Both the position numbers and the translations under genes were made by a program. Source: Saccharothrix sp. (GTDB taxonomy: Bacteria; Actinomycetota; Actinomycetes; Mycobacteriales; Pseudonocardiaceae). From it: DNA of 64,000 bases. The notes below the pieces were generated by a model, which worked only from the letters and a program-made list of their open reading frames with translations, made no database searches and was not told where the DNA came from. The stretch spans positions 28,089 to 92,088 of the forward strand of contig NZ_JAPSLK010000027.1 in assembly GCF_031180885.1 (NCBI RefSeq). The letters are read 5' to 3'. Below are positions 47,987 to 63,800 of the stretch, piece by piece (the stretch's first letter is position 1; every line of letters begins with the position of its first letter).

Positions 47987-49686
47987 CGAGCAGCCTCCTC
48001 GTCGGCCAGAAGATAGTCGCCGAGGATGGTGACCATCTCTTCGAGGTAGTAGGACCGATCTTGCGCACTCCAGAAGTGCATCTGGTGCTCATCGGACGGT
48101 GAGTAGTACTTTAGGAACACATTCCTGGTGCAGACGGGAATGTACGAACCCTGCCGGTCGCGATCGAGGACTGCGGCGCGCTTGACGGCGAACACCGAGT
48201 TGCTCAGCGCGCTGTTGTCGCCGCCGTCGAGCAACGCGAGGTTGGCGATCGAATCCACGCCACCATCACCCGGATCGTTGCCGGCCGAGAGCAGGACGCT
48301 GAGCTCGCGTTCGAGCGGACGGAAGTCTGCTTCGGTTATGGTCGAACTGTCGAGTACCTCATCCAGCCGGTCAAGGACCGCCTTCTTCTCGGTCTGGTCG
48401 ATCCCGTCGACGACCTTCAGCGCCTTGCGGTGCAGGCGCAGCCACTCCTTCCACTGCTCCGCGCGGTTGAGCTGTTCCGCGTTCTGCGCGTGGATGTGCT
48501 CCAGGGACCACCGGCCCAGCGCGTGTTCCCGGAAGGAATACCGTTCGGAGGAGTGCGCCCTCCGGCGAACGGTCTCGACGTTCATGAGCAGCAGTACCCG
48601 GCTCGCCTTGGCGCTCGAGTACTCCAACTCCTTCAGGGTTGCCTCGGACAGTCCCAGGTCGTCGCGGATGAGCCGGTCGAGGTCGGCATCAAACGCCGAC
48701 TTGGGCTTGTCGCGGGACTGGTCGATCAGAGTGCTGAACCGCGTTCCCCTGGCGACGAGGAAGCCGATCTTGTGGAACAGGTCTCGGTTCTCGTACCACC
48801 CCAGGACCAGCGAGTGCAGATCGACCACGTCATTCCAGAACTCCTGGGGATCGGCGGTGATCCGCTTCCTGAGCGTCTCGAACGTGTGGAATTGTGGCCG
48901 ATCACGGCCGGTCGGGCCGCCCGCGATCGTGTCCAACAGGAGGCTGATGTGCGTGGGGTCCTCCGACGCCTTGCCGGTGATGAAGGCCCACAGTTCCGGG
49001 TCGCGGAGATCGCGTTCGATGACGTCCCACTGTGCGGCGATCTCGAGTGCTCGGTCGGTCACGCCGGCGTTGTTGCGGCTTCGTGACAGCAGGAGGGCTT
49101 TGACGAGCTCGGCGTCCGTCAAGGGGATGCGGCCGACGTTGAGCCGAGTGAAGAGCGTGGTCGCATCGAGATCGTCGGAAGCCTCGTACCAGATTACCCG
49201 AACGTGTTCGAAGAGGGCGTCGTAGAACTTGTTCGCGACATATTGACGTCGACTCCCGTGGGCGGCGAACCATGCGCGAATGCACTGGTAGGACTCGTAT
49301 ATGTGGAAGAAGTCGATGTTGTCCTGGCTGCGCTCGGGATCGAGTTCCTCCAGGTAGGCGGCGCTGCCCGGCCGTGTCTCGTACCGGAGGGAGTAGCCGG
49401 CACCGGAACTCTGGAGTCCCTCGCTCTTCATGTGCTGGAAGATGAGGAACAGCGTGGTGAGCCGCTGCTGGCCGTCGACAAGCTCCCACGTGTCACCGTG
49501 TCGCTTCACGACCACCGGCTGGAGGTAGTAGGGCTTGTCGCGACTCTCCCAGATGTCATCGAGCAGCCTACGCACCTCGACAGTGCCCCACCGGTACCCG
49601 CGTTGGTAGGCGGGAACGTAGAACCTGCCCGAGATGTCACCCACGAGCCGGGGCTCCAGATAAGCGTCCCCTCCGGATGCTGTCAC
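47983..49686 (-). CDS. DUF262-DUF1524 protein (GmrSD/SspE-like), HNH nuclease
   Basis: 567 aa. N-terminal DUF262: FYVPAYQRGYRWGTVEV, VDGQQRLTTLFL at residues 70-81, and FTRLNVGRIPLTDAELVK. C-terminal DUF1524 HNH region: RWSLEHIHAQN near residue 395 and SIANLALLDGGDNSALSN near 490, the usual EHIxPQN...N...LSN pattern. This is the architecture of GmrSD-type modification-dependent restriction enzymes and of the SspE effector of phosphorothioate systems. No Ssp or Dnd modification genes are in the window. Its stop overlaps the start of the second DUF262 gene. Confidence 0.85.
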   Translation of the reverse strand: MTASGGDAYLEPRLVGDISGRFYVPAYQRGYRWGTVEVRRLLDDIWESRDKPYYLQPVVVKRHGDTWELVDGQQRLTTLFLIFQHMKSEGLQSSGAGYSLRYETRPGSAAYLEELDPERSQDNIDFFHIYESYQCIRAWFAAHGSRRQYVANKFYDALFEHVRVIWYEASDDLDATTLFTRLNVGRIPLTDAELVKALLLSRSRNNAGVTDRALEIAAQWDVIERDLRDPELWAFITGKASEDPTHISLLLDTIAGGPTGRDRPQFHTFETLRKRITADPQEFWNDVVDLHSLVLGWYENRDLFHKIGFLVARGTRFSTLIDQSRDKPKSAFDADLDRLIRDDLGLSEATLKELEYSSAKASRVLLLMNVETVRRRAHSSERYSFREHALGRWSLEHIHAQNAEQLNRAEQWKEWLRLHRKALKVVDGIDQTEKKAVLDRLDEVLDSSTITEADFRPLERELSVLLSAGNDPGDGGVDSIANLALLDGGDNSALSNSVFAVKRAAVLDRDRQGSYIPVCTRNVFLKYYSPSDEHQMHFWSAQDRSYYLEEMVTILGDYLLADEEAAR

Positions 49687-50200
49687 GGCCGTTGATCCTA
49701 GTGAAGGAGTCCGACATCGAGGATGCCCAAGTCAGAGGACGGGTACCTCGACCGGCGACTGGCGGGACAGCGTCCTGGGGTGCGTCACACGTCCGCGCGG
49801 TCGCCTCGGTGGTCTGAGTGTGGATGGATGAGCCGGTGGCCGGGGCGGTCAGGGACCAACCTCATGCGTTGCGCCGGCGGATGTAGGCGGGGAAGGCGAC
49901 GTTGGATCGGCGTTGCTGCGGTAATCGATGCTGTCGAGGCGAGGTAGCGCAGCGCGGTGAACTTGGCCCGGCTGTCCAACCAGGCACGTTTCAGCGGCGG
50001 AGGCGCCGTTGTAGGTCTGTCCGCTCGCGGGCCACAGCGCTCCAATCAGCATTACGAGCGGACATGCCTCCGCCGCCCGCCTCGTCAGAGCGGCTGGTGC
50101 AGAAGATCGACGTGCGGCGGGTGGTACGCCAGGCTACGGCCAAGGGTGTAGCCCAGGGCACGCTCCGCCCCGCACGCGACGCTTCGGGCTCTCTGTTGCG
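49687..50200. other. Divergent intergenic region; no recognised gene
   Basis: 514 bases between the DUF262 operon and the HTH gene. A minus-strand frame at 49785-50045 has helical-looking sequence but no ribosome site, and I cannot assign it. It should carry both promoters. A possible old insertion or decayed gene cannot be excluded. Confidence 0.3.
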
Positions 50201-51493
50201 ATGAAGTCTTCAGTCGACTTGTATCGCCTTATGCCTCTTCCCTTGCGTGGGATCGACCCGTCGCGGCTGGCGGCGCGTCGTGAGGAGTTGGGGCTTACCT
50301 GTGAGGCGTTGGCCAAGCGGGTCGGGGTTTCGGCGAGGATGATCTTCTTCTACGAGGAGGGCAGGCATACGCCCACGCCGCAACGGTTGAGGCGGTTGGC
50401 TGCGGCGCTGGACTGCGGTGTGGATGTGCTCACGGGTGCCGCCCGTGGGCAGGAAACACTGGTGGATCTGCGGTACACGGCCGGGTTGACCCTGGAGCGG
50501 GTCGCGGAGTTGCTGCGGGACTCGGCGGCGGGGCGGGAGTTGCGTGTGTCCGCGTCCAAGATCTCGGAGTTGGAGAGCGGGCGGCCGGTTCGCGGACGGT
50601 ATTGGCGGGAGCCCGAGATGACGGGCAGGCTCGTCGCTCCGCTGGCGAAGGCTTACAGGGTTCCGGTGCGGATGGTCGTGGACGCGTGGATGCGCACACG
50701 CCCTGGTGAACCGGCTCCCGTCGTGGCGCCGCAGCGAAAGCCCGAGGCTTCTGGGATGGCGGCGTTGGCGACCTGGCGGTCGTTGAACGAGCGTCAGCGG
50801 GTCTACCTCGGAGAGATCATGCGGGAGGACCGCATGAGGGAGACCGAGATGTGGATGCGGCGAGTCCAGCGTTTGCCCGTGGAGAAAGCGGCGCAGTGGC
50901 GGGCGTTGCCGTTGGCGCTGCAGGCACCGCCGTCGGTGGTCGGGTACACCCGGTTGCAGGAGCGGTTGCGTGGACGCGAGGTGCACGACCCCGGTGCGGG
51001 GCCGACGATCCACGCGCTGGAACGGCGTGGTCTGGTCGTGGTCACCGAGGACTCGGTGGAGCATCCCGCTGTCGGCACCGTGGGGCGTGTGCTGGTGGAG
51101 ATCACGCGTCGTGGGCGTGCCGCTGCTCGGGAAGGGTTGGGTGAACCGCGCGATCCCGGCCCGGCGGCGCATCTGCTCTCCGAGTGGTTGTGGGGTGTCG
51201 TGGCGCGCGTCGCCGCGGCCGAGCCCGCCGGGTTGGAGGACGACGGGCTGGCCGGTCGTTCGTTGTTCTTCATCGGTGTGGGCTACCGCGGCAGGACTGG
51301 TGGGCGGCCGAGTCGTGGCCTGGTGGACTCGGTGCCCGTCATGGCGCCGGGCGGGACGCACGTCGTCGAGTACCGGTGGCGCTTGACGCCGTTGGGCCGC
51401 CGTCACGTCGCGGAATTCCTTCACGTTTATCGTGAGCTCTATTCGCATATCGACACTGCCGGGCTCGATCGCCTCGCGGCCGGGGAACCGTAA
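50201..51493 (+). CDS. Two-HTH regulator upstream of the pPIWI-RE island
   Basis: 430 aa from ATG 50201 (ATG 50231 possible). Two XRE-like regions: REELGLTCEALAKRVGVSAR, MIFFYEEGRHTPTPQRLRRL, and a second around GLTLERVAELLRDS, VSASKISELESGRPV. The C-terminal 200 residues are a winged-helix-like domain (GPTIHALERRGLVVV, VEYRWRLTPLGRRHVAEFL). It precedes the pPIWI-RE genes in the same direction with a gap of about 65 bases holding a small hairpin. It may regulate the island, which is inference. Confidence 0.7.
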   Translation: MKSSVDLYRLMPLPLRGIDPSRLAARREELGLTCEALAKRVGVSARMIFFYEEGRHTPTPQRLRRLAAALDCGVDVLTGAARGQETLVDLRYTAGLTLERVAELLRDSAAGRELRVSASKISELESGRPVRGRYWREPEMTGRLVAPLAKAYRVPVRMVVDAWMRTRPGEPAPVVAPQRKPEASGMAALATWRSLNERQRVYLGEIMREDRMRETEMWMRRVQRLPVEKAAQWRALPLALQAPPSVVGYTRLQERLRGREVHDPGAGPTIHALERRGLVVVTEDSVEHPAVGTVGRVLVEITRRGRAAAREGLGEPRDPGPAAHLLSEWLWGVVARVAAAEPAGLEDDGLAGRSLFFIGVGYRGRTGGRPSRGLVDSVPVMAPGGTHVVEYRWRLTPLGRRHVAEFLHVYRELYSHIDTAGLDRLAAGEP

Positions 51494-51494
51494 A

Positions 51495-51513
51495 CAAGAA
51501 AGCCCTATTCTTG
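51495..51513 (+). promoter_or_regulatory. Small hairpin and possible promoter before the pPIWI-RE island
   Basis: CAAGAA at 51495-51500 pairs with TTCTTG at 51508-51513 just after the HTH stop, followed by a TTTTT run, so weak termination is possible. Further on, TATGCT ends eight bases before the GTG at 51558, where no ribosome site is seen; that spacing would suit a -10 box for a leaderless mRNA. Confidence 0.35.
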
Positions 51514-51557
51514 CGGTCGCGCGTTTTTGTCGGTGGTGCTGTCTATGCTCCCCGGCC

Positions 51558-52802
51558 GTGACGAGTTCCCCCGAGCACGACGTACAGGCGCTCGACGACG
51601 TCCGGGTCCGCTACCTGGTGACCCGGTCCGCCCTGCGTGCGGCGAAGGCGATGACCGAACCGGGGCTCAGGCCCGAAAAGCGCCTGGAAACACTGATGGA
51701 GTGTCATGGCGCCTTGCTGGCCGCCCGAGGGCCCGGCAGCCCGCTGTCGTTCGGACAGTTCCGTCGGGCGCTCAAGGACGACCTGGCCGTGCTGCTGCCC
51801 GACGGTGTCACTCCGCTGGACTTGAAGGGGACGCGGGTCGTCGACCAGGACGGTCGGGTGCCCGAGGACGCGTTCGACCTGGATCTCGAGCAGCAGATGC
51901 TGCTGAGGATGCTGCACAAGTCCGACGGTGCCGCGGCGGTGATCAGTGATCGGGAATTCCAGGCGGAACTCGATCAGGAGACCGTGTTCACCCTGTTGCG
52001 CAAGCAGGGCGAACAGGCGGTGTACGAGGCGGGCCGCACAGACTTGATCCGCCGTCCCGCGGGCCCTGTGCACGAATTGGCCGAGTTGCGGCTGCCGCCG
52101 TTGGTCGTGGACTTCTACCGGGATATTCCCTACGACTCGGCATATCGGGGTTGGTGGTTCCCCTGTCCGATCTGCCGGTGGCCGATGCGGATCACCGTGC
52201 GGAACAACGCCGGAACCACCGTGGGCGCGGCGCGCTGCTGGCATGCGCCCCACGCCGAGATGGGCGCCTCCTACCTGTTCAGCGTGCCCGCGGACGCCGG
52301 CGCTCCCCGGCTGCTTCCCGAACCCGAGCCCGTGCGGCCCACCGGCCGTGAGGCGGTGCTGTATCCGGATCTGGGCGAGGTTCCGGCGGCGTTGCCCACG
52401 GAGGGCCACAAGGCCCTCACCCGGGGAATCTGGCGCTACACGACCATTCCGGGGCTGCCCGAGCTGGCACTGCACGACAAGCTGGCCGCTCGGGGACTGA
52501 AGGTCAGTCTGTGGCCAGGGCTGGACGCCTTCGACCTCCTGGTGGAGGTGGGCCCGAAACAGGGAAGAAAGACCTCGTTCAAGGTCGACATCAAGGACTA
52601 CACGTCGGCCAGGACACTGGCCGAGCTCATCCACGCCCAGGAAGGCGATCGAGGCGGAGCCGACTGGCTCGTGGTGCCCGATCACCATGGTGGCCACGTG
52701 CCGCTGCTGTCGGGCGTGTGCGCCAAGTACGACATGCGGGTGGCCACCGCCTCCGAGTTCGGCGAGATGGTCTGCGAGAAGGCCGGGGTGAGCTGGGCAT
52801 GA
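51558..52802 (+). CDS. PD-(D/E)xK-type endonuclease of the pPIWI-RE island (pPIWI_RE_REase)
   Basis: 414 aa. A central zinc-ribbon-like part has FPCPICRWPMR near residue 205 and then RCWHAPHAEMG near 228. The C-terminal nuclease domain starts at WPGLDAFDLLVEV (Asp near 323-326) and has FKVDIKDYTSA near 340, the D...(D/E)xK arrangement of restriction endonuclease folds; then VVPDHHGGH and the tail. The product is the first gene of the three-gene pPIWI-RE island. Its stop overlaps the helicase start (ATGA). No ribosome site precedes GTG 51558; leaderless translation is possible. Role: cutting DNA, presumably at the site selected by the partner proteins. Confidence 0.78.
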   Translation: MTSSPEHDVQALDDVRVRYLVTRSALRAAKAMTEPGLRPEKRLETLMECHGALLAARGPGSPLSFGQFRRALKDDLAVLLPDGVTPLDLKGTRVVDQDGRVPEDAFDLDLEQQMLLRMLHKSDGAAAVISDREFQAELDQETVFTLLRKQGEQAVYEAGRTDLIRRPAGPVHELAELRLPPLVVDFYRDIPYDSAYRGWWFPCPICRWPMRITVRNNAGTTVGAARCWHAPHAEMGASYLFSVPADAGAPRLLPEPEPVRPTGREAVLYPDLGEVPAALPTEGHKALTRGIWRYTTIPGLPELALHDKLAARGLKVSLWPGLDAFDLLVEVGPKQGRKTSFKVDIKDYTSARTLAELIHAQEGDRGGADWLVVPDHHGGHVPLLSGVCAKYDMRVATASEFGEMVCEKAGVSWA

Positions 52803-55800
52803 GCGACCTGCCGACCGGGCACACCGCGATCTACGCCGCACTGGCCCTCGCGGCCCACTACTTCCCCCGGGAAAGCGAGGACGGCTCGCGCGGCGCCGCG
52901 CCGTTCGCCGAGGCGGCGTTCCTCCTGTCGGGGAAGTACCGGGCATGGGACCGCTGGACGCTGCTGCCGCACGAGGAGAAGCAGCGGATCGCCCTGGTGT
53001 GCTCGATTGCCCCCGCCGAACTCGCCGACGTCGCGCGATTCTCCGTGGCGGCGCGCTCGCTGCTGGCACGGCTGGACACCGACTCACCCGGTGACACGTT
53101 GGTCATGGCGCCCTTCGACCTCGCGGGCGACAACCCGTTCGCCGCCGACGCGGTGTTGCCCCGGCTCGGGGGCGACCCGCTGGGCTATGTCGACCGTCTG
53201 ACCGCGCGGTTCCGGCGCCCGAGCGCTCGCCCCAAGCCCGCGGAATTCGCCGGACCCGGCACGTGGAAGACCGGAGAGATCTTCGTCAAGGACCTCGGAC
53301 AGATCCACGGACGGGTAACGATCCCCGCCTACCCCCGATTCACCCAGGCTCTCGACCACGACAGCCTGCCCCACGTGTCGACCGCGCCGCACCTGGCCGA
53401 CCTGCGCATCCCGAAACCCGAGCTGCTCGACCTCGCCGAGAAGATCGACTCGCGCTACCCGGAGGACGTGCGCTATCTGCACAGCGTCCTGGAGGGCTTG
53501 TTCGCCGTGCTCGACACCAGCGACACCATCTCCCCCGCGGAGGTGTTACGGCTGACCGCCGGCGGCATGGAGATCTTCAACGCGCCGACCGGCACCGGCA
53601 AGAGCGTGCTGGTGCGCGTCATGGCCGCCTGGTTCGCCGCGCGGAACCTGCGGGTGGCGATCGTCCTGCCCGACATCAAGGCATGCCTGGCCCTGACCCG
53701 CAACGTGCGTGGGGACCTGGCCCACCTGCACCGCAGCCGGGTCATCGAGCACGAGCCCGGCTGCGCGCACCTGATGTCGTCCTCGGGCATGCACGAGCGG
53801 GCGGTCAAACTCGCCTCCTTGATCAAGGAGGACCCGGACGCGCCGGGGGAGTGGGGCGACCGGGCCGAACGCGATGTCGACCCGCTGGCGTACGGGTGTG
53901 CGCTCAAGACGTTCCTCGACGCCACCGGCGACTATCCGCCCGGCCGTGAACCGTGCCTGTCGCTGCACCGCCAGGGCGTCGGATCGGCGGCCTGCCCCTG
54001 GATCCCGACGTGCGGGAAGTACACGCCGGTGTACGAGTCGGCCCAGGCCAACGTCGTGATCATGAACCACTACGTGTTCATGCAGGGCAACCTGCGCATC
54101 GGCGTCAATCTCGATGGCCGCGCGGTGCGTGGGATGACCGCTGCGGAGTTCGCGCTGCGGACCTGCCACGCGGTCCTGGTCGACGAGGTCGACCAATTCC
54201 AGTCCCGGGCCGTGGACAAGTGCGCCAGCGAGATCGTCCTGCACTCGCGACGTCACTGGTCGGCTGCGCCCCAGGAGATCGACACCGACGCCAAGCGGTT
54301 GACCATCGACGACGAGCACAACCTCCTGCCAGCCGTCAGCCACGTCCGGCTCATGGCCGAGTTCCTCCTGCTCAGCATCTGCAAGAACGCCCTGAGCCTG
54401 CACGTCACCGAGGACGAACGGACACAGACGCGAATCCCGGACCAGACCAGCACCCGTTGGCACCTGGCCCGCGGACGCGACCGCACCCTGCTGCGGCTGT
54501 TGTGGCCGGAGGAGGAAACGGAGGACGAGACGTCCATTCCGGTCGAGCTGTTCCACAGACTCAACGCGCTCATGCCCGCCCGATACCGGAGCCGGGACCC
54601 GCTGCTCGGTCCGTCTGGGCCTCTCGATCCGGTCTGGCAGGACGTGCGGGAAGCGCTCAGCGCGCTGATCGCACCCCGCGGCGAGCACCTGCTCGACCAG
54701 GTCAAGATCGAACTGCACAGGCTGCTCGAGGCCGGCGTCAAGGACCCGCACCGACGCGCCCAGGCCATCAACCTGCTCGTCACCCGGACCGCGATGATCG
54801 AACTGGACGAGGCGCTGGCGGTCCTGCAGGGCAAAGCTCACGACTACCGGTCCTCGGGACTGCGCTCGGCCCACAGGATCGTCGAAGGCGTGCAGCCCTC
54901 CGCCGTCTCCGCCGCCCTGCCGTTGGGGATGCTCGGACGATCCATCACCGGCTACCGCGTCACCGGCCTCGACGACAAGGAGAAGAACGCCACCTTGGTC
55001 GCTCAGACCATCGCCGGCGACCCGCACACCTTCACCGCCGAACTGGGCGGCATCGTGTCGCTGATCCTGGCCGGCGTCGAACGACCGGTGATGGGCCTGT
55101 CCGCCACCGCATACTTTCCCCAGGCGGTGCGCGAACACCTGTTCGCCCCGGTGCGGTGGTGGATGACCGACGCGCAGGCCGAGTCCATCCGGGCCCGCAA
55201 ACACCGCATCGACTACGGCGAAGGCCACCCCCTGTTCGGCGAGCCCATCAAGATCTCCGGAACCCACCCCAGCCGCAAGAAAGACGCACTCATCGAACTG
55301 GGCACCAACCTCTACGACCGGCACATCCACCGCGAACTCACCCGCAGCAGCAAAGACGGCCGGGGACGTGTCCTGGTCGTGGCCAACTCCTACCAACAGT
55401 GCGCGTGGCTGGCCCGCGGCATCAGCCGAGCCGGACACTACGACGGCGGACTGTGCCTGGCCGTGCGCGCCGAAGACCTCACCAGCACCGACCCGGAGCT
55501 GCCCCGGCAGAATGTCGCCGTACGGCTGACGGCAGAGGAGTTTGAGGACTTCCCCAGCCACGGCAAGATCCTGGTCGTCCCTCTGTCGCTGATCGCGCGC
55601 GGCCTCAACATCGTCGTCGGCACCCGCTCGGCGGTCCGATCGGTGTACCTGTGCGTGCGTCCTCTCGCGCTGCTCGACGACCCCGCCGAGATGTACGGCA
55701 GCATCAACGCCGCCGGTCTGCGCGCGCTGCTCGCGGGCGGTTCGCCCGACCCGTCATACGTCCTCGCCGAAGCCCGCGAGGCGGCCACGGAGCGACTCGC

Positions 55801-56122
55801 GCTGCTGTTGCGCACAGCGCCGCAGTTCACGGCGATGCACAAGTCGCTACAGGACGAAGTCGTCGCGGGCATGATCGTCGATCTGATCCAGCTCGCCGGA
55901 CGTGCCCGCCGCGGCGGCACCGATGCCGTGCTGCACATGGTCGACTACGCCTTCCACGAGGACACCTGGAGCGCCGACCTGGAGACCGTCCTGCGACGCA
56001 TCCACTCCCTGTGGCCCCCCGACGTGCGACAGCGCATGAACGACCTGTACGGGGAGGCCCTCAACGCCTTCCTTTCCTACGCCGGTATCGACGCCCCCGC
56101 ATCCGGCCACCCCAGCATCTGA
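52799..56122 (+). CDS. DinG/XPD-type superfamily 2 helicase of the pPIWI-RE island
   Basis: 1107 aa. An N-terminal 240-residue extension precedes the motor. Walker A: NAPTGTGKSVLVR near residue 261-272. An iron-sulfur-type cysteine set follows (GCALKTF, REPCLS, SAACPWIPTCGKY) and NHYVFMQ. Motif II is LVDEVDQF near 460. C-terminal motifs include PVMGLSATAYFP, LVVANSYQQ, and IQLAGRARRGG (motif VI). This matches the DinG-like helicase linked to pPIWI-RE. The ATG overlaps the nuclease stop. It should unwind DNA or RNA:DNA hybrids for the complex. Confidence 0.82.
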   Translation: MSDLPTGHTAIYAALALAAHYFPRESEDGSRGAAPFAEAAFLLSGKYRAWDRWTLLPHEEKQRIALVCSIAPAELADVARFSVAARSLLARLDTDSPGDTLVMAPFDLAGDNPFAADAVLPRLGGDPLGYVDRLTARFRRPSARPKPAEFAGPGTWKTGEIFVKDLGQIHGRVTIPAYPRFTQALDHDSLPHVSTAPHLADLRIPKPELLDLAEKIDSRYPEDVRYLHSVLEGLFAVLDTSDTISPAEVLRLTAGGMEIFNAPTGTGKSVLVRVMAAWFAARNLRVAIVLPDIKACLALTRNVRGDLAHLHRSRVIEHEPGCAHLMSSSGMHERAVKLASLIKEDPDAPGEWGDRAERDVDPLAYGCALKTFLDATGDYPPGREPCLSLHRQGVGSAACPWIPTCGKYTPVYESAQANVVIMNHYVFMQGNLRIGVNLDGRAVRGMTAAEFALRTCHAVLVDEVDQFQSRAVDKCASEIVLHSRRHWSAAPQEIDTDAKRLTIDDEHNLLPAVSHVRLMAEFLLLSICKNALSLHVTEDERTQTRIPDQTSTRWHLARGRDRTLLRLLWPEEETEDETSIPVELFHRLNALMPARYRSRDPLLGPSGPLDPVWQDVREALSALIAPRGEHLLDQVKIELHRLLEAGVKDPHRRAQAINLLVTRTAMIELDEALAVLQGKAHDYRSSGLRSAHRIVEGVQPSAVSAALPLGMLGRSITGYRVTGLDDKEKNATLVAQTIAGDPHTFTAELGGIVSLILAGVERPVMGLSATAYFPQAVREHLFAPVRWWMTDAQAESIRARKHRIDYGEGHPLFGEPIKISGTHPSRKKDALIELGTNLYDRHIHRELTRSSKDGRGRVLVVANSYQQCAWLARGISRAGHYDGGLCLAVRAEDLTSTDPELPRQNVAVRLTAEEFEDFPSHGKILVVPLSLIARGLNIVVGTRSAVRSVYLCVRPLALLDDPAEMYGSINAAGLRALLAGGSPDPSYVLAEAREAATERLALLLRTAPQFTAMHKSLQDEVVAGMIVDLIQLAGRARRGGTDAVLHMVDYAFHEDTWSADLETVLRRIHSLWPPDVRQRMNDLYGEALNAFLSYAGIDAPASGHPSI

Positions 56123-56150
56123 TGGAAAGCACGAGAGAGAACGAGACCCC

Positions 56151-59000
56151 GTGACCGAGCACGACCTGGCACCCGGCAAGTACCTCAACACCCTAGCCGT
56201 CCGTTGCACCCCTGAGCTGGTCGGCGACTCCGCGGTCCACGTACGGCACTTCGACGACGTGACCTGGAAGTTGTGGGACGACTTCGACCTGCACTGCAAG
56301 CGGAAATGCGGCAGCGACGACGCCCAAGCCCCCTACTCCGTCGCCACCACCGTCCTGAGCATGATCACCGGCGGCTACGTCTACCTCGAACCCGACCGAC
56401 GTGGACCGTTCCTCGCCTCGCTCACTCCGATCGACAGCACGCTGCTGCGCCGCGCGTTCACGCTCACCTACCACCTGGCCCTCGGGCAGCAGGTTGGCAC
56501 GATCGACCTGACCGCGCCACCGGAGCTGGCCAAGCGGATCGCCGACACCCCGGAGACCAAGTACCAGCTGGCCGACCATCTCCAGCCCGTCCACGACACC
56601 CAGCCCACCGCCCCTGGCTGGCTGTACCGCACAGTCACCTGGGAGCTGTCCCAGCGGCTGGCCGCCCAACCCTGGGCGATCTCCGACGACAGGAGCATCA
56701 CGCTACGGCCCGACTCCACGGGCGGCCTCGTGGCCTTCGACGATCCCTGGCAGAACGAGCAAGGCGGCCGTTACGCCCTGTCTCGGACCGCGCTGCGCCT
56801 CAAGACCGTTCCCAACATCAAAAATCCCGTCGTGCTGGTGGGTTCACGCGTTACCCGCATCTCCTCCTCCCTGGTCTTCGCCAGAACCGCGCTGGCCGAA
56901 CAGCCCGGCCGCGGGCACCCCCTGCTGGAGGTCACCCTCAACGGCAGGGGCGGCGCCCGCACCATCAACCGCCTCGCCCTGCAAGCCCTCGGCCGGCTGG
57001 AGATGGACTACTCCGTCCTGCGCACCATCGACGAGCGGTCCAAGCGGGAACAGAAGCTTCTCGCCGAGGCCAAGGAGAACAACCAACCGGCCCGCTTCCC
57101 TCAAGACCATCCCGGACAGGTCTGGCCGATCCTGCCCAAGAACTACACCTTTCCCATCGGCACCGGCACCGGTATGCAGCACCTCAGGCTCCTGCACCGC
57201 CACGTCATCAGCGTTTTCCCCGACACGGCAGTACCGCTGGAAGCCCGCGAGGTGCGCGTCGCCATGCCACGCCGCCCCACGGACCCGGAGAACATCTCCA
57301 AGCAGGAATACCAGCGCCGCAAGCAAGCACGAGAGCAACATCCGGACCCCAAGACGCTCGGGCCGATCCGTGAACGCGGCAGCCTGTTCCCCACACCGGA
57401 GTCCATCCGAGCCAGCGTCGAGAGCGCCGGATTCACGTCACTGCGAATCCTGTGCCTGTGGTACCGGGACGAGACCCGCCTGCGGATGCTCGACACCCTC
57501 CGCAAGACCTTCGACCTCGACCCCCAGGCCCTGGACCCCCACGACGGCGAGGAACTCCGCCTGCACGGCGAGCAGATCACCGCGGTCTTCCACCACGCCG
57601 AGAACTTCCTCAAGCCCGGCACCGCAGGCAACCGCACTGCGGCGCTGACCGCCGTGGACGCCTCCCTGACGACCCACCACCACGTGCTCGTCGGCGCCTG
57701 GTGTGAAACCGAGATCCCCACCCCGGCCGACAGCGACAACCCCGGCGAGACCAGCCTCGACGACCTCGACGCCAAGCCACAGACCAAGAAATTCCTCGCC
57801 GCGCGCGGCGTGCCGACGCAGTACCTGCTCGGCAAGGACGACAAGGGCGTGATCCAACCGAAAGCCAAAGACCACGCCGCCGAGATGGCACTGCTGGACC
57901 TCTACCGCTCGCTGGGCATCGTCGACGACCGCATCGCCAACGCCCTACGGCCCGAGAAGAACGGCTATCCCGTCGACCGCATCGCCCACGTCGGAATCTA
58001 CGTGCGCCAACAGAACCGGCGCAGGGGCGAGTTCGGCCAACCCAAGGTGATCGTCACCGCGTCGGCCCTCGTGCCCCCGCAGGACGGCAACGGGGTCTGG
58101 ACCATGCTCGGCTGGAGTTCCATCAAACCGGAATGGCAGCCCTACCACTCCGCACAGACCGCCTTCCACGCCGGCGCCTACCCGGAGGGCATCAACGACA
58201 AGAAGTCCTACCGGCAACGCTGGGACGACGCGGCCGACACCGTCGAACGCGCCCTCGCCGACCTGGCGGAGGAACTGGACGACATCCCGTACGCCGTCAC
58301 CATCGACGCCGCCGCCTCACGGCGGATGTGGGACGGGCTGCAGAACATGCACCTCGGCGGCTCCTCCGACAACAAGAAGAGCCGCTACTGGCTTCCCGGC
58401 AGCAGCCTGCCCCCGGACGAGCGCCCCCGCGCTGTCATCCGCGTCAACACCGACGACGAAGAAGTACCCCAACCGGTCGGCACCACCCACATCGCCCGAT
58501 CCAAGCACAGCGAACCCGTCGAGAAAGAAACCGCGCGAACCCTCTACGCGATCACCACGGACTTCGGCACCCCGGTATGGATCCTCTGCAACGTACCCCG
58601 AGCCTACGACGGAGACGGCGCCGGGCGACTCGGGTCGAAGTACACTCGGTGGGACGCCAAGCGATCCGTCTCCTCCGAGAAAAAGGAGGAGCGGCGCAAG
58701 GGCGAGATGTCCCAAAACTGGTACTCCATGACGGCCAACGAGATCATCCCGCTCGCGTGCGCCGACGACGTATCCGCGGAAGCCCTCGCCATTACCACCG
58801 CGAAGCTCTGCCACCAAGCCCAATTCTGGGACGGCCGGTCGCGCCTGCCCATCCCACTCCACGCCGCCAAGCAGATGGACCTGGACCACCCCCAATACCG
58901 GCGCACCGTCGCCCCAGAAGAGAAGATCGACACCGAACCCGGGTCAGCCCAGGGCGTGCTGGATGAGCGTCTCGCAAGCCAGGACATACAGCAGCGGTAG
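56151..59000 (+). CDS. pPIWI-RE protein (Argonaute/PIWI-superfamily, RE clade)
   Basis: 949 aa. GTG at 56151, 28 bases after the helicase stop. The N-terminal half matches the pPIWI-RE X-type region; the C-terminal half is the RNase H-like PIWI module: GIYVRQQNRRRGEF near 614, VTIDAAASRRMWDGLQN near 716, AVIRVNTDDEEVPQP near 760 with a candidate conserved Arg, and NWYSMTANEIIPL near 856-868 with the candidate conserved Glu that give the clade its name. The end has CHQAQFWDGRSRLPIPLH. Prokaryotic pPIWI-RE proteins were predicted to bind RNA or RNA:DNA hybrids and guide the helicase and nuclease; activity has not been tested in this system, as far as I know. Confidence 0.85.
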   Translation: MTEHDLAPGKYLNTLAVRCTPELVGDSAVHVRHFDDVTWKLWDDFDLHCKRKCGSDDAQAPYSVATTVLSMITGGYVYLEPDRRGPFLASLTPIDSTLLRRAFTLTYHLALGQQVGTIDLTAPPELAKRIADTPETKYQLADHLQPVHDTQPTAPGWLYRTVTWELSQRLAAQPWAISDDRSITLRPDSTGGLVAFDDPWQNEQGGRYALSRTALRLKTVPNIKNPVVLVGSRVTRISSSLVFARTALAEQPGRGHPLLEVTLNGRGGARTINRLALQALGRLEMDYSVLRTIDERSKREQKLLAEAKENNQPARFPQDHPGQVWPILPKNYTFPIGTGTGMQHLRLLHRHVISVFPDTAVPLEAREVRVAMPRRPTDPENISKQEYQRRKQAREQHPDPKTLGPIRERGSLFPTPESIRASVESAGFTSLRILCLWYRDETRLRMLDTLRKTFDLDPQALDPHDGEELRLHGEQITAVFHHAENFLKPGTAGNRTAALTAVDASLTTHHHVLVGAWCETEIPTPADSDNPGETSLDDLDAKPQTKKFLAARGVPTQYLLGKDDKGVIQPKAKDHAAEMALLDLYRSLGIVDDRIANALRPEKNGYPVDRIAHVGIYVRQQNRRRGEFGQPKVIVTASALVPPQDGNGVWTMLGWSSIKPEWQPYHSAQTAFHAGAYPEGINDKKSYRQRWDDAADTVERALADLAEELDDIPYAVTIDAAASRRMWDGLQNMHLGGSSDNKKSRYWLPGSSLPPDERPRAVIRVNTDDEEVPQPVGTTHIARSKHSEPVEKETARTLYAITTDFGTPVWILCNVPRAYDGDGAGRLGSKYTRWDAKRSVSSEKKEERRKGEMSQNWYSMTANEIIPLACADDVSAEALAITTAKLCHQAQFWDGRSRLPIPLHAAKQMDLDHPQYRRTVAPEEKIDTEPGSAQGVLDERLASQDIQQR

Positions 59001-59004
59001 AGAT

Positions 59005-59040
59005 GTGCGGGGTCAGGTGGATTACCGCCGGGCCCCGCAC
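59005..59040 (+). terminator. Hairpin terminator of the pPIWI-RE island
   Basis: GTGCGGGG at 59005-59012 and CCCCGCAC at 59033-59040 form a perfect 8-bp stem with a 20-base loop, five bases past the pPIWI-RE stop. It is the likely end of the transcript. Confidence 0.6.
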
Positions 59041-59269
59041 GATCCCTCTAGAATTAACCGAATGGGAAAGTTGGTTAACGTCAGGTCGGCCGGTTGGTAA
59101 TCGGTTGATCGTCAGGGTCTTTGAGAACTCGTGCGATCGCTAAAACGTTATTGCAATGGCCTTCGTTGTCTGGCAGTCCAAGTGCCCATCGAGGGTTCCC
59201 CCGGGCTTGCCGTTAAAGCTTTAGCGGGATCGACGTTAGTTAATGCATTACTGCAAGGTGGAGGTAGAA
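59041..59269. promoter_or_regulatory. AT-rich promoter region of the Mrr gene
   Basis: 229 bases of clearly lower GC than average, with TTAACC at 59054-59059 and GGTTAA at 59073-59078 forming an inverted repeat, and further GGTTGGTAATCGGTTG and TTAGTTAATGCATTA words. Such composition suggests horizontal acquisition of the unit that follows. Confidence 0.4.
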
Positions 59270-59896
59270 ATGACAGTCCTGGAACGAATCAAGAAGATGT
59301 CGCCGGCCTCGCGGGTTGTCGCGGCGATAGTGATACTCATGGCGTCGGACTTCGCCCGGGAACATCCCGTGCTGTCGACGGTGACTGCGGCAATGTTAAT
59401 GGGCATATTAGTGGCCGTGCTGGTGACGCGGCGGCGTAATCGCCATGCTGAGCGATTGCGCCAGATTGAACGCGAACGTGCAATTGAGGTCACCGACGGT
59501 ATGGATGGGGCCGAATTCGAGAAATGGACTGCGCGACTGTTGGCGCGATCGGGCTGTAGAGATGTTAGAGTTGTCGGTCGCTCAGGGGATATGGGTGCCG
59601 ATGTGGTGGCCATATCCCCAAGCGGTGGCCGGCTTGTCGTGCAGTGCAAACGTTACACTGACAAGAAGGTGGGAAGCGGGTCGGTTCAATCCTTCTCGGG
59701 GACCGCCTGGCACATTCACAAAGCAAGTCTTGCGATGATGGTCACCACAACGGCTTTCACGAAGCCGGCTCAGGAGGTGGCGGCGAGGATACCCGGAATG
59801 GTGCTCATCGATCGGTCCGCTCTCGCTGAGTGGGCCCGCACTGATGTCCTCCCCGGGATCGACGGTGCAGTTCGGCGCTCACCTGCATCCGCATGA
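59270..59896 (+). CDS. Mrr-type restriction endonuclease with N-terminal membrane helices
   Basis: 208 aa; the ATG at 59270 follows AAGGTGGAGGT. Two hydrophobic segments at about 14-27 and 36-54, then a basic linker and an Mrr catalytic domain: DGAEFEKWTARLLARSG, GDMGADVVAIS (Asp111), LVVQCKRY (Gln125-x-Lys127), and GSVQSFSGTAWHIHKA. All the (D)-(QxK) residues of Mrr nucleases are present. The membrane anchor is unusual for classical Mrr but common in actinobacterial versions. It lies directly after the pPIWI-RE island and may belong to the same defence region. Confidence 0.82.
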   Translation: MTVLERIKKMSPASRVVAAIVILMASDFAREHPVLSTVTAAMLMGILVAVLVTRRRNRHAERLRQIERERAIEVTDGMDGAEFEKWTARLLARSGCRDVRVVGRSGDMGADVVAISPSGGRLVVQCKRYTDKKVGSGSVQSFSGTAWHIHKASLAMMVTTTAFTKPAQEVAARIPGMVLIDRSALAEWARTDVLPGIDGAVRRSPASA

Positions 59897-60264
59897 CGCT
59901 GCCTAGCGCACTGTAGGTCTCTTGTGTCCGGAATGGGTGTCGGCCAATTGAAACGGTGCTGCGCGGAACAGTCGATTTCGTCACCCCTGCGGCCGACCTC
60001 GTGGAGCTCGACCGCAACCACCTCGATCGCGGTCTCCGCAGCGCCCTCGAGTTCGGCGAACACGTCCTCCAGTTCGTCCGACGGCTCCCCGTCAAGTCCG
60101 ACGACGGTGTAGAAGTCCTTCTCCACCGTGGCGTCGTTGATCGAGATCCGGTGCCGCGTGGTGCCCGGGATTACGACGCGCATGAGCTGGTTGCGGTCGT
60201 CGGCGAAACGCCGCAGGTGCGACTTCGGCACGGTGTGGTGGCGCCGCTTGCGCTGAGGGCTCAT
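59770..60264 (-). pseudogene. DUF4238 protein, truncated
   Basis: The N-terminal 85-90 residues are DUF4238-like: RRHHTVPKSHLRRFADD, GTTRHRISINDATVEKDFY, DGEPSDELEDVFAELEG, AIEVVAVE. Family members are usually 250-300 aa. Here sense stops near 59990 and the frame runs into the complement of the Mrr 3' end, stopping at 59770. The 3' part has been lost in a deletion joining the two convergent genes. Confidence 0.55.
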
Positions 60265-60383
60265 GGGCGCAGTTCCGATCGAGTGTTGGACGCCGTTGAT
60301 GCCGGCGCTGTCCCGGCCGGCAGGACTTTCCGAACCTGGACGATCTCGTCTGAGGGGACCAGGGTCCGAGCGCGCCGTGCCGG

Positions 60384-60548
60384 TCAGTAGTTTCCCATGC
60401 CGGTGTCGTCACCCCGGCTGGTTCCGCGGCGGTCGTCGCCTTTCGACGTTCGGCCGTCGGGCGGCGTTCGTCCGTGCCGTTGCTCCCAGGCGTCCTTCGC
60501 TTGCCGGACCTTCTCACGGAACTTGGTCCGATTAAATCCGAGGCCCAT
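60384..60548 (-). CDS. Small basic protein, 54 aa
   Basis: ATG at 60548 follows GAGGTGG. It reads GLGFNRTKFREKVRQAKDAW, EQRHGRTPPDG and a charged tail. It may be a small nucleic-acid-binding or antitoxin-like protein. No family recognised. Confidence 0.45.
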   Translation of the reverse strand: MGLGFNRTKFREKVRQAKDAWEQRHGRTPPDGRTSKGDDRRGTSRGDDTGMGNY

Positions 60549-60628
60549 GTCGACCACCTCACGGTGCCACCGGCGCGGGCGTCCGATGCGGACGTGCGCC
60601 CAGGCAGCTCTCAATGGGGTAATCGGCG

Positions 60629-60969
60629 TTGCGCCATGCGTGGTACGACGCCTGCGGCTGCGAGCAGGAGGTCGACCGGGACTTCGTGCCCGACCACGAG
60701 ATCCGCGCTCTCATGGCGCGGGGTCAACACCCAACTTTGGCCACGCGGGCCGCCGGCGGTCACCGGGGTCGTGTTCGTCGACCAGCAGCTCCGGTGGAGG
60801 CGTTGGACGGGCCGGTGCTGCCTTGCCTGCTGGCCATGCTGGACCGGGTCCGCTCAGCGCTGGGAGGGCTGCCGCTGACAGGCGACCGACGCCCTGCCCC
60901 TGACATCCCGATGACGCCTCGCAGCAGATGCACGTGTTGTCGGTCCGCGCCGATAGCGTGGTCGCGTGA
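60629..60969 (+). pseudogene. Small unidentified protein with three apparent one-base indels
   Basis: The first frame gives WYDACGCEQEVDRDFVPDHE, IRALMARGQHPTLATRA. Sense then shifts to another frame (VTGVVFVDQQL) and back (PVEALDGPVLPCLLAML, DRVRSALGGLPL), then to a third (DDASQQMHVLSVRADSVVA) that ends at 60969 overlapping the next GTG start as GTGA. That needs one G removed near 60758 and one C added near 60789 and 60912. So either a decayed gene or assembly errors. The start is uncertain (TTG 60629). Confidence 0.45.
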
Positions 60970-61883
60970 GCGAGGAACACCCGAGCCAGCCGACACGCGA
61001 CGAGATCCTGGCCGAGCAGTCCGGCCCGCGCGAGCGCGTGCTGGACGAGCACATGTACCGCGTCGAGCAGGCCGGGCTCAGGGCGACATTCCGTTTGCAG
61101 CTGTTCACCGCGGCTGGCCTGCGGCCGGTCGCGGTCGCCACCCAGAACATGTCCGAGGGGCAATCCCTGCTCAACGGCTGCGAGACGTTCTGCATGCACG
61201 TGTGGCACCATCGATTCCCCGACCAGGAACACCCGCCGCTATGGGTTCAACGCCTGGTCCACGAGCACTTTGGGCACTGGCAGCTGGTCACGTTCGACGT
61301 CGACGACGACCGCACGCTGCACAACCCCCTCTGGCCACGCCTGTCCCAGCAGCAACTCGACACGCTCGTCGGAACCACGGTCGACCCCGACCGGGGCAGC
61401 GGATTCGTGCCCTGGCCGAAGGCCCCGGAGTACCGGATGCGGTACGCGCCGGCGCCGGTGGCCCGGATGCCGACGACGCGCCCGTTCCGCACGACGTGCA
61501 TGACCGGCCGCGCCCGACGTCGAGGTCGGTGGGCTTACCGGGTGCTGCGCCGCTGGCGACCGCTGACTGGGGAGACCTGCTGCTGGTACCACGGAGGGGA
61601 CTGGCGCACCGTCAACCAGCACGCTCTCCGCCTCTTGCGCCTCGCAGAGTCCGCCAGCGTGGACCCGGAGGATGTCGCCGACCACGTGGTTGCCACCGCA
61701 CGCGCCGAAGGGCTGACCGAGTGGGAGATGGAGGCGTTGGGCAGCCTGTTCGACGATCCGATCGAGACCACCGACAGCGAGCCGCCGACATACGTCAACG
61801 GCCAACACCGCATCCAGGCGATGCGCGACGCCGGAGTGAAAACCACCATCACCGGCCGCCTCGAACAGGTCGAGAGCAGCTGA
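60966..61883 (+). CDS. Hypothetical protein with YVNGQHR (ParB-like) C-terminal motif, 305 aa
   Basis: GTG at 60966 overlaps the previous stop. The N-terminal 150 residues form one domain (RATFRLQLFTAAGLRPVAVA, HEHFGHWQLVTFDVDDDR). The C-terminal part has GGDWRTVNQHALRLLRLAE, TEWEMEALGSLFDD and TYVNGQHRIQAMRDAGVKT, the last resembling the nucleotide-binding box of ParB-like proteins. The linker around 150-180 is low-complexity and may be shifted. Function unknown. Confidence 0.55.
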   Translation: MSEEHPSQPTRDEILAEQSGPRERVLDEHMYRVEQAGLRATFRLQLFTAAGLRPVAVATQNMSEGQSLLNGCETFCMHVWHHRFPDQEHPPLWVQRLVHEHFGHWQLVTFDVDDDRTLHNPLWPRLSQQQLDTLVGTTVDPDRGSGFVPWPKAPEYRMRYAPAPVARMPTTRPFRTTCMTGRARRRGRWAYRVLRRWRPLTGETCCWYHGGDWRTVNQHALRLLRLAESASVDPEDVADHVVATARAEGLTEWEMEALGSLFDDPIETTDSEPPTYVNGQHRIQAMRDAGVKTTITGRLEQVESS

Positions 61884-61994
61884 TCGTCGGAACCTGTGCG
61901 AACGTTCGCAGAGGTGCGAACACTCGCATCCCTGCGAGGGGCATCTGACCTGATCAGAAGAGCGGGTGTTCGAAGAAACAGTCGACCGCTCGAT

Positions 61995-62741
61995 CTAACC
62001 CCAGGGCTGCCGGGCCAGCGTGACGCCCCGGACCGTGCGGGCTCCGGCCTCGCGCAGGCGCCGTGCCACCGCGTTGAGCGTGTTACCGGTGGTGAACACG
62101 TCGTCGAAGACCACCACGGTGGCACCGACGACGGCAGCAGGATCGAGCACTTGCAGTGCGTCGTAGATGCTGCTGGAGACGGAGAGACGCTCCCCGTAGT
62201 CGTTGGTGCTGGCCATTCTTGGGGTCGCCTGGGTCTTGACGATCACGGGTGGGTCGGCTCGGAACGCATAGCCGACGGTGTCCTGGGCTGCCGCGGATTC
62301 GATGACCCAACCCGCATGGTCGATCTCCTTGCGGGTCGTCGCGCCTGGAGGAAGCGGCAGGGTGGGCATCGGAATGATCAGGTCAGCCTCCGCCACCGCT
62401 GGGTCGCGGGCGAGGTGCCCGAGCAGCACGCGGGCGAATATGATCCCCCACCCCCAGCGCTGGTTGTACTTGTGGTCCTTGATGGCGCGGTCGAGGGCTC
62501 CGGTCTTCATCGCAATCGCGTGGTTGAACTCGAACTGCCGGCCGGGGTCTCCACACAGGCGGTTCGAGCAGCGGTCCTGCGCAGTGGCGATGCGCTGACC
62601 GCACGCCGTGCAGTAGAAGGGCGCTGCCGGCTCCAGGGTGGCCGCAGCGCATTGCTGGCAGACCAGCGGCGGCCCGGAGGCGAAGTAGGCGCACGTGCCG
62701 CAGTTGCCGAAGCCCGCAGGGGTCGGGAGCTGGTAGGTCAC
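61995..62741 (-). CDS. ComF-like phosphoribosyltransferase with N-terminal zinc ribbons
   Basis: 248 aa. Two or three CxxC zinc-ribbon pairs in the first 65 residues (CGTCAYF, VCQQC, CTACGQR, CSNRLCG), then a PRTase domain with the PRPP motif VVVFDDVFTTGNTL at about 209-222. This is the layout of ComF/amidophosphoribosyltransferase-like PRTases. It follows a DprA-like gene by 19 bases on the same strand. A PRTase/DprA pair is unlike housekeeping dprA, which usually sits with topA, and such pairs have been proposed as conflict systems; this is inference. Confidence 0.75.
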   Translation of the reverse strand: MTYQLPTPAGFGNCGTCAYFASGPPLVCQQCAAATLEPAAPFYCTACGQRIATAQDRCSNRLCGDPGRQFEFNHAIAMKTGALDRAIKDHKYNQRWGWGIIFARVLLGHLARDPAVAEADLIIPMPTLPLPPGATTRKEIDHAGWVIESAAAQDTVGYAFRADPPVIVKTQATPRMASTNDYGERLSVSSSIYDALQVLDPAAVVGATVVVFDDVFTTGNTLNAVARRLREAGARTVRGVTLARQPWG

Positions 62742-62760
62742 CAGGGCGGGAACCCTTCGA

Positions 62761-63711: not shown

Positions 63712-63800
63712 CCTACTCCGATCAAACAACTGTTCGAATGCGTCGGGTCAGATCATTGCATAGATTAGCGATTACACACCCGGAAGCCCCGCCATGCGAC

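What the first reader, a model, noticed from the sequence alone, without database searches (positions are those of the whole stretch)
51558..59000. Complete pPIWI-RE three-gene island (nuclease, DinG helicase, pPIWI-RE) in one transcript
Seen: three intact genes with ATGA coupling between the first two and a 28-base gap to the third, ending in a hairpin at 59005. The nuclease has a zinc-ribbon part and a PD-(D/E)xK core. The helicase has Walker A, DEVD and a cysteine set. The third has the NWYSMTANEI and VIRVN segments of pPIWI-RE. Known: this island type was predicted as an RNA- or R-loop-guided defence system. Inference: it is functional here, since no frameshift is visible in 7.4 kb despite decay in nearby genes.
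Basis: partly seen in the sequence, partly recalled or inferred. Interest (0 to 1): 0.88.

Follow-up and report, generated by a model that had tools for sequence, protein, structure and literature searches.

The report
Four-gene bacterial PIWI island
A known but little-studied bacterial gene set built around a distant relative of Argonaute, found here with an overlooked fourth gene and with a promoter sequence of the kind that switches genes on after DNA damage.

Summary
In detail: 51558-59000 encodes an intact pPIWI-RE island (REase, DinG-type helicase, pPIWI-RE) with family models met, diagnostic residues kept and purifying selection on every gene. The system kind is known (predicted 2013, one enzyme studied 2022, listed in PADLOC). 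Added here: (1) A fourth gene, 50231-51493 (XRE HTH plus winged-helix-like C-terminal domain), precedes the REase in 16 of 16 close relatives; among 394 genomes, 5 of 5 strong hits to that domain lie beside pPIWI-RE. (2) The REase-DinG-pPIWI unit has an exact RecA-NDp/PafBC DNA-damage promoter (51527-51549), 8 nt before a leaderless GTG. It is kept in the 17 window-type loci (one base off in L009) and recurs in other lineages (20 of 36 loci by script, about 0.04 expected); in this genome the motif also precedes recQ, ligA, uvrA and proteasomal-ATPase genes. (3) The first PIWI catalytic position is not Asp in any of 39 aligned proteins. Best reading: a damage/ssDNA-induced system in which a non-slicing PIWI finds targets and the REase cuts. 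Defence versus repair is unresolved; both AlphaFold models were too poor for a fold test.

The parts
50196..50230 (+). Conserved element (consensus TTGCnATGAAGTCTTCAnTC, with a TAT-like box and then the ATG) before the HTH gene; the palindrome TGAAGTCTTCA is 50202-50212. Probable promoter/operator of the fourth gene (inference).
   Evidence: TGAAGnCTTC stands upstream of the gene in 15 of 17 window-type loci (not L010, L017) and in L071 and L072, once in each of those loci. The upstream ATG (50201) leads to a stop in L005, is out of frame in L006/L007/L011/L013/L016 and is absent in L014/L015, so ATG 50231 is the likely start.
50231..51493 (+). Fourth gene of the island: XRE-type HTH (two HTH_31 stretches) plus winged-helix-like C-terminal domain, 420 aa (430 aa from ATG 50201)
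   Evidence: Pfam HTH_31 5e-15; directly upstream of REase in 16 of 16 related loci, 54-87% identity; C-terminal domain strong in 5 of 394 genomes, all beside pPIWI-RE
51527..51549 (+). RecA-NDp/PafBC-type promoter TTGTCGGTG-N8-TATGCT; -10 hexamer 51544-51549
   Evidence: Exact match to tTGTCRgtg-8nt-TannnT quoted in PMC5656591; one match in the window, none in 100 shuffles; core columns conserved in 17 of 17 window-type loci
51558..52802 (+). pPIWI-RE-associated REase, probably leaderless GTG start, 414 aa; zinc ribbon 52164-52253, PD-(D/E)xK domain 52452-52790
   Evidence: PF18154 4.7e-26, residues 299-411; PADLOC pPIWI_RE_REase 4.7e-29; invariant residues
52799..56122 (+). DinG-type SF2 helicase with four-Cys (Fe-S type) set, 1107 aa
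   Evidence: PADLOC PprDinG 1e-100; motifs invariant in 34 sequences
56151..59000 (+). pPIWI-RE protein, 949 aa: X domain 56202-57323, MID 57630-57929, PIWI/RNase H 57987-58895; Tyr617 at the expected first catalytic Asp position
   Evidence: PF13111, PF18157, PF13032; alignments
59004..59041 (+). Strong hairpin after the last gene, no T-run; probable transcript end
   Evidence: -34.6 kcal/mol, z -5.56

Best explanation
This is a pPIWI-RE (PADLOC 'Ppr') system in a four-gene actinobacterial form. SHOWN by sequence: an XRE/winged-helix-like protein gene, then a RecA-NDp (PafBC) type promoter placed for a leaderless start, then REase, DinG-type helicase and pPIWI-RE genes under purifying selection, with nuclease and helicase motifs intact and no Asp at the expected first PIWI catalytic position. 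INFERRED: when single-stranded DNA accumulates (phage or plasmid replication, gyrase poisons, stalled forks), PafBC reprogrammes RNA polymerase and the three effector genes are made. pPIWI-RE holds a short guide or an RNA/DNA hybrid without cutting it. The DinG helicase opens the hybrid or R-loop, and the zinc-ribbon REase cuts the DNA. The fourth protein keeps its own gene low (operator palindrome) and may also act as a DNA-binding partner of the complex. Damage-dependent expression would keep a methylase-free nuclease silent in healthy cells. Likelihoods: family identity about 0.98; damage-inducible promoter about 0.8; non-slicing PIWI about 0.8; immunity rather than repair as the main role about 0.6.
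For: Families. Motif residues. Selection. Promoter: exact consensus and 8-nt distance to the GTG; 15 strict sites in 9.46 Mb with 0 for the reversed control. For the 14 sites other than the island's, ORFs downstream were scanned with Pfam: RecQ, LigA, UvrA, DnaN-like, proteasomal ATPase, YgjP/SprT, Macro (below its cut-off), SWIM, YjbR, DUF4132; four had no match. Motif 7-8 nt before an in-frame REase start in 20 of 36 loci, about 0.04 expected by a rough estimate, including the divergent lineages L034 and L076. PafBC is activated by ssDNA (PMC11804915, passages). A P. stutzeri piwi-re knockout survives ciprofloxacin about 15-fold less, and that enzyme acts on RNA/DNA hybrids (PMC10991935, parts 1-3 of 4 read). 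Fourth gene.
Against: No expression, binding or phage data. None of the 14 other strict sites was shown to lead recA; four lead to ORFs without a Pfam match, and one of these (L098) faces the far end of an opposite-strand gene and may be a chance site. Sixteen of 36 loci do not score for the promoter (L009 for one base, L016 for a broken REase frame, L029 for spacing, 13 without it), so it is not a property of the whole family; the 17 window-type loci share descent and are not independent. Motif and fourth gene were seen first in close relatives and then tested more widely. 12 of the 17 pPIWI-RE genomes lack a strong hit to the fourth protein's C-terminal domain. The first-Asp call rests on the hydrophobic pattern of strand 1; no active relative was available as a positive control, and the AlphaFold model is unusable (pLDDT 44). 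Weak relatives of the C-terminal domain occur away from pPIWI-RE.
Confidence: 0.6

Rival explanations
1. A genome-maintenance system rather than immunity: a damage-induced R-loop/fork-processing complex in which pPIWI-RE recognises RNA/DNA hybrids at collisions of replication and transcription, DinG removes them and the REase trims DNA.
For: Promoter shared with repair genes; ciprofloxacin sensitivity and filamentation of the P. stutzeri knockout, growth otherwise normal (PMC10991935).
Against: Patchy distribution (17 of 394 class genomes; 6 of 396 in the phylum draw), presence on 15 Streptomyces plasmids and on cyanobacterial plasmids, and a neighbourhood of restriction-type genes (GmrSD, Mrr, ShosA-like) fit defence better.
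Confidence: 0.28
2. The conserved box before the REase is the operator of the island's own HTH protein, and its likeness to RecA-NDp is incidental.
For: The HTH gene accompanies the box in all 17 window-type loci, and many of the relatives have an extra GGCGCC in the spacer.
Against: The same strict string precedes repair genes elsewhere in this genome; L076 has the strict box with no hit to the HTH family's C-terminal domain, and L034 has it with only a stand-alone C-terminal domain at the other end of the operon. The HTH gene has a different conserved palindrome of its own.
Confidence: 0.1
3. The fourth gene is only a neighbouring regulator carried along, not part of the system.
For: XRE proteins often sit beside mobile genes (recalled); weak relatives of its C-terminal domain occur elsewhere without pPIWI-RE; 12 of 17 pPIWI-RE genomes do without a strong hit.
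Against: Kept in 16 of 16 loci at 54-87% identity while the window's other neighbours are not; its C-terminal domain alone is kept in G667 (upstream) and in G182, where it overlaps the stop of the PIWI gene; dN/dS 0.13-0.16.
Confidence: 0.3
4. The island is a decaying remnant.
For: L016 and L017 show broken frames, and L027 has an IS3-type insertion in its helicase gene.
Against: All four window genes are intact with dN/dS 0.13-0.25, and the active-site residues of nuclease and helicase are invariant.
Confidence: 0.03

Closest known systems
pPIWI-RE three-gene island (Burroughs, Iyer and Aravind 2013, PMC3702460; PADLOC Ppr)
   Same: Same families, same fixed order REase-DinG-pPIWI, overlapping or close gene ends, conserved R and E, zinc ribbon, four-Cys DinG
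   Different: Separate fourth XRE/winged-helix-like gene instead of an HTH fused to the REase (the paper reports LexA, TetR, MerR and other fusions); RecA-NDp promoter and leaderless start, not mentioned in the section read (section 6)
PsPIWI-RE of Pseudomonas stutzeri DSM 4166 (PMC10991935)
   Same: pPIWI-RE gene directly after dinG, clustered with a nuclease gene; knockout links it to DNA damage/replication
   Different: PsPIWI-RE keeps D525/D610 and cuts RNA-guided DNA and DNA-guided RNA; here the first Asp position is Tyr in the window and Tyr, His, Trp or Lys in the relatives
PafBC / RecA-NDp regulon of actinobacteria (PMC5656591, PMC8223512, PMC11804915; Streptomyces SCO6735, PMC5087735)
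   Same: Exact promoter consensus; same genome has the motif at repair genes
   Different: No paper found that places a pPIWI-RE or Argonaute-like operon in it (searches)
Catalytically inactive long pAgos such as RsAgo (recalled; named in PMC10991935)
   Same: Guide-binding, non-slicing PIWI that would need a partner nuclease
   Different: X domain in place of PAZ/N; partner REase and helicase fixed in one operon

Membership tests
pPIWI-RE (Ppr) three-gene system | PIWI module matching the pPIWI-RE RNase H, MID and X models | tested here: met
   PF13032 1.4e-69, PF18157 1.5e-8, PF13111 1.9e-28, all over cut-off
pPIWI-RE (Ppr) three-gene system | Conserved Arg and Glu of the family | tested here: met
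   R764 and E864: 36 of 37 each (R missing in truncated L035, E gapped in L033); 39 of 39 each in the second alignment
pPIWI-RE (Ppr) three-gene system | REase-fold partner with zinc ribbon, first in order | tested here: met
   PF18154 4.7e-26; Zn ligands and E/D/DxK invariant in 21 of 21. In this branch the HTH gene stands before it
pPIWI-RE (Ppr) three-gene system | Helical Y domain with conserved Arg before the zinc ribbon | tested here: inconclusive
   Only weak PADLOC pPIWI_RE_Y hit 1.5e-4, 56-169; none in Pfam at 0.01
pPIWI-RE (Ppr) three-gene system | DinG-type helicase with Fe-S-type cysteines, second in order | tested here: met
   PprDinG 1e-100; four Cys 34 of 34
pPIWI-RE (Ppr) three-gene system | RNase H-like fold in a structure model | tested here: inconclusive
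   Model mean pLDDT 44, pTM 0.28; no fold search was run on it
pPIWI-RE (Ppr) three-gene system | Activity against invading DNA | not testable with these tools
   Needs bench work
Catalytically active PIWI-RE (as PsPIWI-RE) | Two catalytic Asp (D525, D610 in PsPIWI-RE) | tested here: not met
   First position Tyr617 in the window; over 39 rows 21 His, 12 Trp, 5 Tyr, 1 Lys, 0 Asp. Position inferred; no active relative in the alignment. The likely second position (719) is Asp in the window and in 20 of 39 rows
RecA-NDp/PafBC promoter | tTGTCRgtg-8nt-TannnT upstream of the gene | tested here: met
   51527-51549 exact; consensus from PMC5656591
RecA-NDp/PafBC promoter | Host carries PafB/PafC and uses the motif at repair genes | tested here: inconclusive
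   Motif at repair genes: yes. Two adjacent WYL genes on C4, about 29 kb from the proteasomal-ATPase site, are candidates; orthology not tested
RecA-NDp/PafBC promoter | Induction by DNA damage through PafBC | not testable with these tools
   Needs expression data
LexA/SOS control | CGAAC-N4-GTTCG at the promoter | tested here: not met
   No match with up to 1 mismatch between 38594 and 55132; the nearest exact one lies inside the helicase gene at 55132

The most novel reading that the evidence does not exclude
In a large actinobacterial branch, pPIWI-RE is a damage-inducible, non-slicing Argonaute relative in the PafBC (ssDNA-sensing) regulon. It forms a four-protein machine with a dedicated DNA-binding subunit, and PafBC's ssDNA signal acts as the infection or damage alarm that arms a methylase-free nuclease.
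Probability: 0.5. Interest if true: 0.78.

Novelty: new variant of a known kind. Interest (0 to 1): 0.6.

Why it matters
pPIWI-RE islands were predicted in 2013 as RNA-guided restriction systems, and I found a single biochemical study in the library searched; neither trigger nor in vivo role is settled. A conserved PafBC-type promoter gives a concrete, testable trigger (ssDNA/DNA damage), explains how a methylase-free nuclease could be kept silent, and fits the one published knockout phenotype. The fourth gene and the missing catalytic Asp say which parts to test: the REase as effector, the PIWI protein as a binder, and an overlooked DNA-binding partner that the three-gene model omits.

Tried and rejected
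Neighbours as parts: Mrr (59243-59896), the GmrSD pair (45707-49686) and ORF 60966 have no counterpart in the fetched stretches of L002-L017 (10 kb each side of the PIWI gene, less where contigs end) and are left out. The ComF/DprA pair recurs only in L002, on the other side of the island. LexA control: no SOS box at the promoter. Rfam RNAs in 44000-64000: none at gathering scores. tRNA genes in the window: none. Phage and viral-contig homes: no relatives of the PIWI protein. PDB: no sequence relative of the REase or helicase; for the PIWI protein only chance-level hits. NCBIfam has no match for the three proteins at 0.01. Structure: AlphaFold gave pLDDT 55 for the HTH protein (N-terminal HTH region good, C-terminal part poor) and 44 for pPIWI-RE, so no fold search was run. 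Papers: searches (15 was too broad to be useful); PMC7641849, seen in passages, is on another subject. A genomes search with the whole HTH protein mostly returned unrelated XRE domains, scored few candidates per genome and was cut in its listing; it was replaced by the C-terminal profile. A positive control with the catalytic Asp was sought through plasmid searches and not found.


Full report
Observation. Three intact genes lie at 51558-52802, 52799-56122 and 56151-59000. The REase, X, MID and RNase H models of Pfam are met above cut-off. The helicase, which no Pfam model recognises at 0.01, matches PADLOC PprDinG at 1e-100, and PADLOC also names PprPIWI. Zinc-ribbon and REase residues are invariant in 21 of 21 sequences. 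Helicase Walker A lysine, DExD residues and the four cysteines are invariant in 34 of 34. The family R (R764, in VIRVN) and E (E864, in TANEI) are kept in 36 of 37 rows each in one alignment and 39 of 39 in another. dN/dS of the window against L002, L003 and L004 is 0.13-0.25 for all four genes. The hairpin at 59004-59041 is strong but lacks a T-run.

Relatives. One scan of genome contigs gave 16 loci (L002-L017, 58-86% identity; Saccharothrix, Crossiella, Streptomyces, Microtetraspora, Spongiactinospora, Kribbella, Actinomadura and others). They were chosen by closeness to the PIWI protein, so they are biased to the window's own branch. In wider draws PF13032 was found in 6 of 396 genomes of the phylum and 17 of 394 of the class, 16 of them over cut-off. 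Fifteen Streptomyces plasmids carry divergent relatives (24.6-31.6% identity); in all five of those inspected, the PIWI gene follows REase- and helicase-type genes, the helicase gene of L027 being interrupted. Cyanobacterial plasmids carry more distant relatives; in the four inspected, two genes in the same direction and of about the expected sizes precede the PIWI gene, the first annotated MerR in one and Fis in two. No phage or viral-contig relative was found.

Fourth gene. In 16 of 16 of L002-L017 the gene directly upstream of the REase is an orthologue of the window's HTH gene (54-87% identity), on the same strand, with 56-68 nt between them in the 16 loci measured (window and L002-L016); the window's other neighbours (Mrr, GmrSD pair, ORF 60966) have no counterpart in the stretches fetched. 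Its N-terminus is XRE-like; no Pfam or NCBIfam match has its best stretch beyond residue 88. Because XRE domains are everywhere, the C-terminal domain was searched alone: strong matches (over 200 bits) occur in 5 of 394 class genomes (G000, G182, G500, G501, G667), every one on the same contig as PF13032 and within about 7 kb of it; five weaker matches (20-69 bits) are in genomes without PF13032. In G667 the domain stands alone upstream of the REase; in G182 it is a 220-aa ORF overlapping the stop of the PIWI gene. So the C-terminal domain, not the XRE part, is the constant piece. Against this: 12 of the 17 pPIWI-RE genomes lack a strong hit, the profile was built from pPIWI-RE loci, and weak relatives exist on other plasmids. 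A palindrome, TGAAGTCTTCA in the window, stands before the gene; TGAAGnCTTC is kept in 15 of 17 window-type loci and in L071 and L072. It suggests self-regulation (inference). The comparison also moves the likely start to ATG 50231.

Promoter. The 64-nt gap before the REase holds TTGTCGGTG-N8-TATGCT at 51527-51549, then 8 nt, then GTG. The consensus of the RecA-independent damage promoter, tTGTCRgtg-8nt-TannnT, is printed in PMC5656591 (passages); I first recognised it from memory. The window has one match, 100 shuffles none. The genome has 15 strict matches and 0 for the reversed control. One is the island. For the other 14, the ORF downstream was scanned with Pfam: RecQ, LigA, UvrA (93 nt on), a DnaN-like clamp, the proteasomal ATPase, a YgjP/SprT protein, a macro domain (below cut-off; the Streptomyces macrodomain gene SCO6735 is UV-inducible and has such a promoter, PMC5087735, passages), SWIM, YjbR and DUF4132; four had no match, and one of these, L098, probably leads no gene. 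recA was not met. In the 17 window-type loci the columns TGT, TA and CT are invariant and the -10 lies 7-8 nt before the start in 17 of 17, while the flanks have drifted; L009 has TGTG. By script, 20 of 36 pPIWI-RE loci have the relaxed motif 7-8 nt before an in-frame REase start, about 0.04 expected by a rough estimate from the rate in the same loci; this includes L034, L070, L071, L072 and L076. Sixteen do not: L009 (one base), L016 (broken REase frame), L029 (motif, other spacing) and 13 without it. On a tree of 35 PIWI proteins the label (L029 counted as having it) needs 4 changes against a shuffled mean of 11.0 (0 of 500 as low), and L034 and L076 lie on the other side of the midpoint root from the window; the root is for drawing only and L034's branch is long, so its place is unsure. 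A pair of WYL genes that could be pafBC lies on C4 near the proteasomal-ATPase site, orthology untested.

PIWI chemistry. In PsPIWI-RE, D525 and D610 are needed for cleavage and R639/E718 are not (PMC10991935). The window has AHVGIYVRQQ where strand 1 of the RNase H fold should carry the first Asp; of 39 rows, 21 have His, 12 Trp, 5 Tyr, 1 Lys and none Asp. The likely second position is Asp in the window and in 20 of 39 rows. I had no active relative to align, and the AlphaFold model is poor, so the assignment is an inference from the strand pattern and the start of PF13032 at residue 613.

Mechanism. I favour a damage/ssDNA-armed nuclease system: PafBC, which ssDNA activates (PMC11804915, passages), turns on REase-DinG-pPIWI; a non-slicing PIWI protein finds RNA/DNA hybrids or guided targets; DinG opens them; the REase cuts. 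The 2013 paper proposed the last three steps, with both active and inactive PIWI versions; the trigger, the fourth partner and the non-slicing call for this branch are what this work adds. Whether the targets are invaders or the cell's own R-loops is open: plasmid homes, patchiness and the defence neighbourhood favour invaders; the repair regulon and the ciprofloxacin phenotype favour maintenance. Both may be true, since phage replication also makes ssDNA.

Novelty. The system kind is known. In the library searched, 13 papers from 2013 on hold the whole word PIWI-RE (listing, two of them read in part), 53 hold RecA-NDp or PafBC (20 listed, four of these read in passages: PMC6789036, PMC8223512, PMC11804915, PMC5656591), and only one holds both PafBC and Argonaute, on another subject. 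I found no statement of a damage promoter or a fourth gene for pPIWI-RE in what I read; subscription papers and preprints outside the library were not searched.

Noticed in passing
61995-63729 (-); L002 1981-3707: A ComF-like and DprA-like (PADLOC ShosA 1.2e-70) gene pair lies just downstream of the island here and, at 84-90% identity, just upstream of it in Saccharothrix sp. NRRL B-16348: two defence-type modules that stay together but change sides.
   Followed up: partly
45707-49686 (-): Two GmrSD_N genes overlapping by 4 bases, a probable type IV restriction-like pair next to the island; no counterpart in the stretches of the 16 relatives.
   Followed up: partly
59243-59896 (+): Mrr_cat nuclease with a hydrophobic N-terminal stretch (possible membrane anchor), directly downstream of the island; no counterpart in the stretches of the 16 relatives.
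   Followed up: no
L025 3949-4497, L026 3883-4374, L027 5036-5611, L028 3199-3786: In 4 of 5 inspected Streptomyces plasmids a gene annotated 'phosphothreonine lyase domain' (Pfam Bles03, 3.8e-19 for L025, the one scanned) is divergently transcribed right before the pPIWI-RE island: a possible further partner.
   Followed up: partly
G000:C38:25552-25574 (L089), 2.5 kb left of the window: Another strict RecA-NDp site, 6 nt before a 392-aa ORF with no Pfam match.
   Followed up: partly
window 38581-38594 and 55132-55145: Exact SOS-box-like CGAACnnnnGTTCG strings; with 1 mismatch allowed the window has 13 against 4.66 expected (0 of 100 shuffles reach 13).
   Followed up: no
L005-L009, L013-L015, L017: gap before REase: These relatives share GGCGCC inside the promoter spacer (GGTGCC in L016), which the RecA-NDp consensus does not ask for; possible second binding site.
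   Followed up: no
L027 7286-8496; L016; L017: Broken islands: an IS3-type transposase inside the helicase gene of a Streptomyces plasmid, and frame breaks in the islands of Streptacidiphilus sp. 4-A2 and Allosalinactinospora lopnorensis (decay or sequencing error).
   Followed up: no
L032 and L078 (G246, G557): Nearly identical pPIWI-RE proteins (end branches 0.007) in two genomes held as different species: recent transfer or close kin.
   Followed up: no
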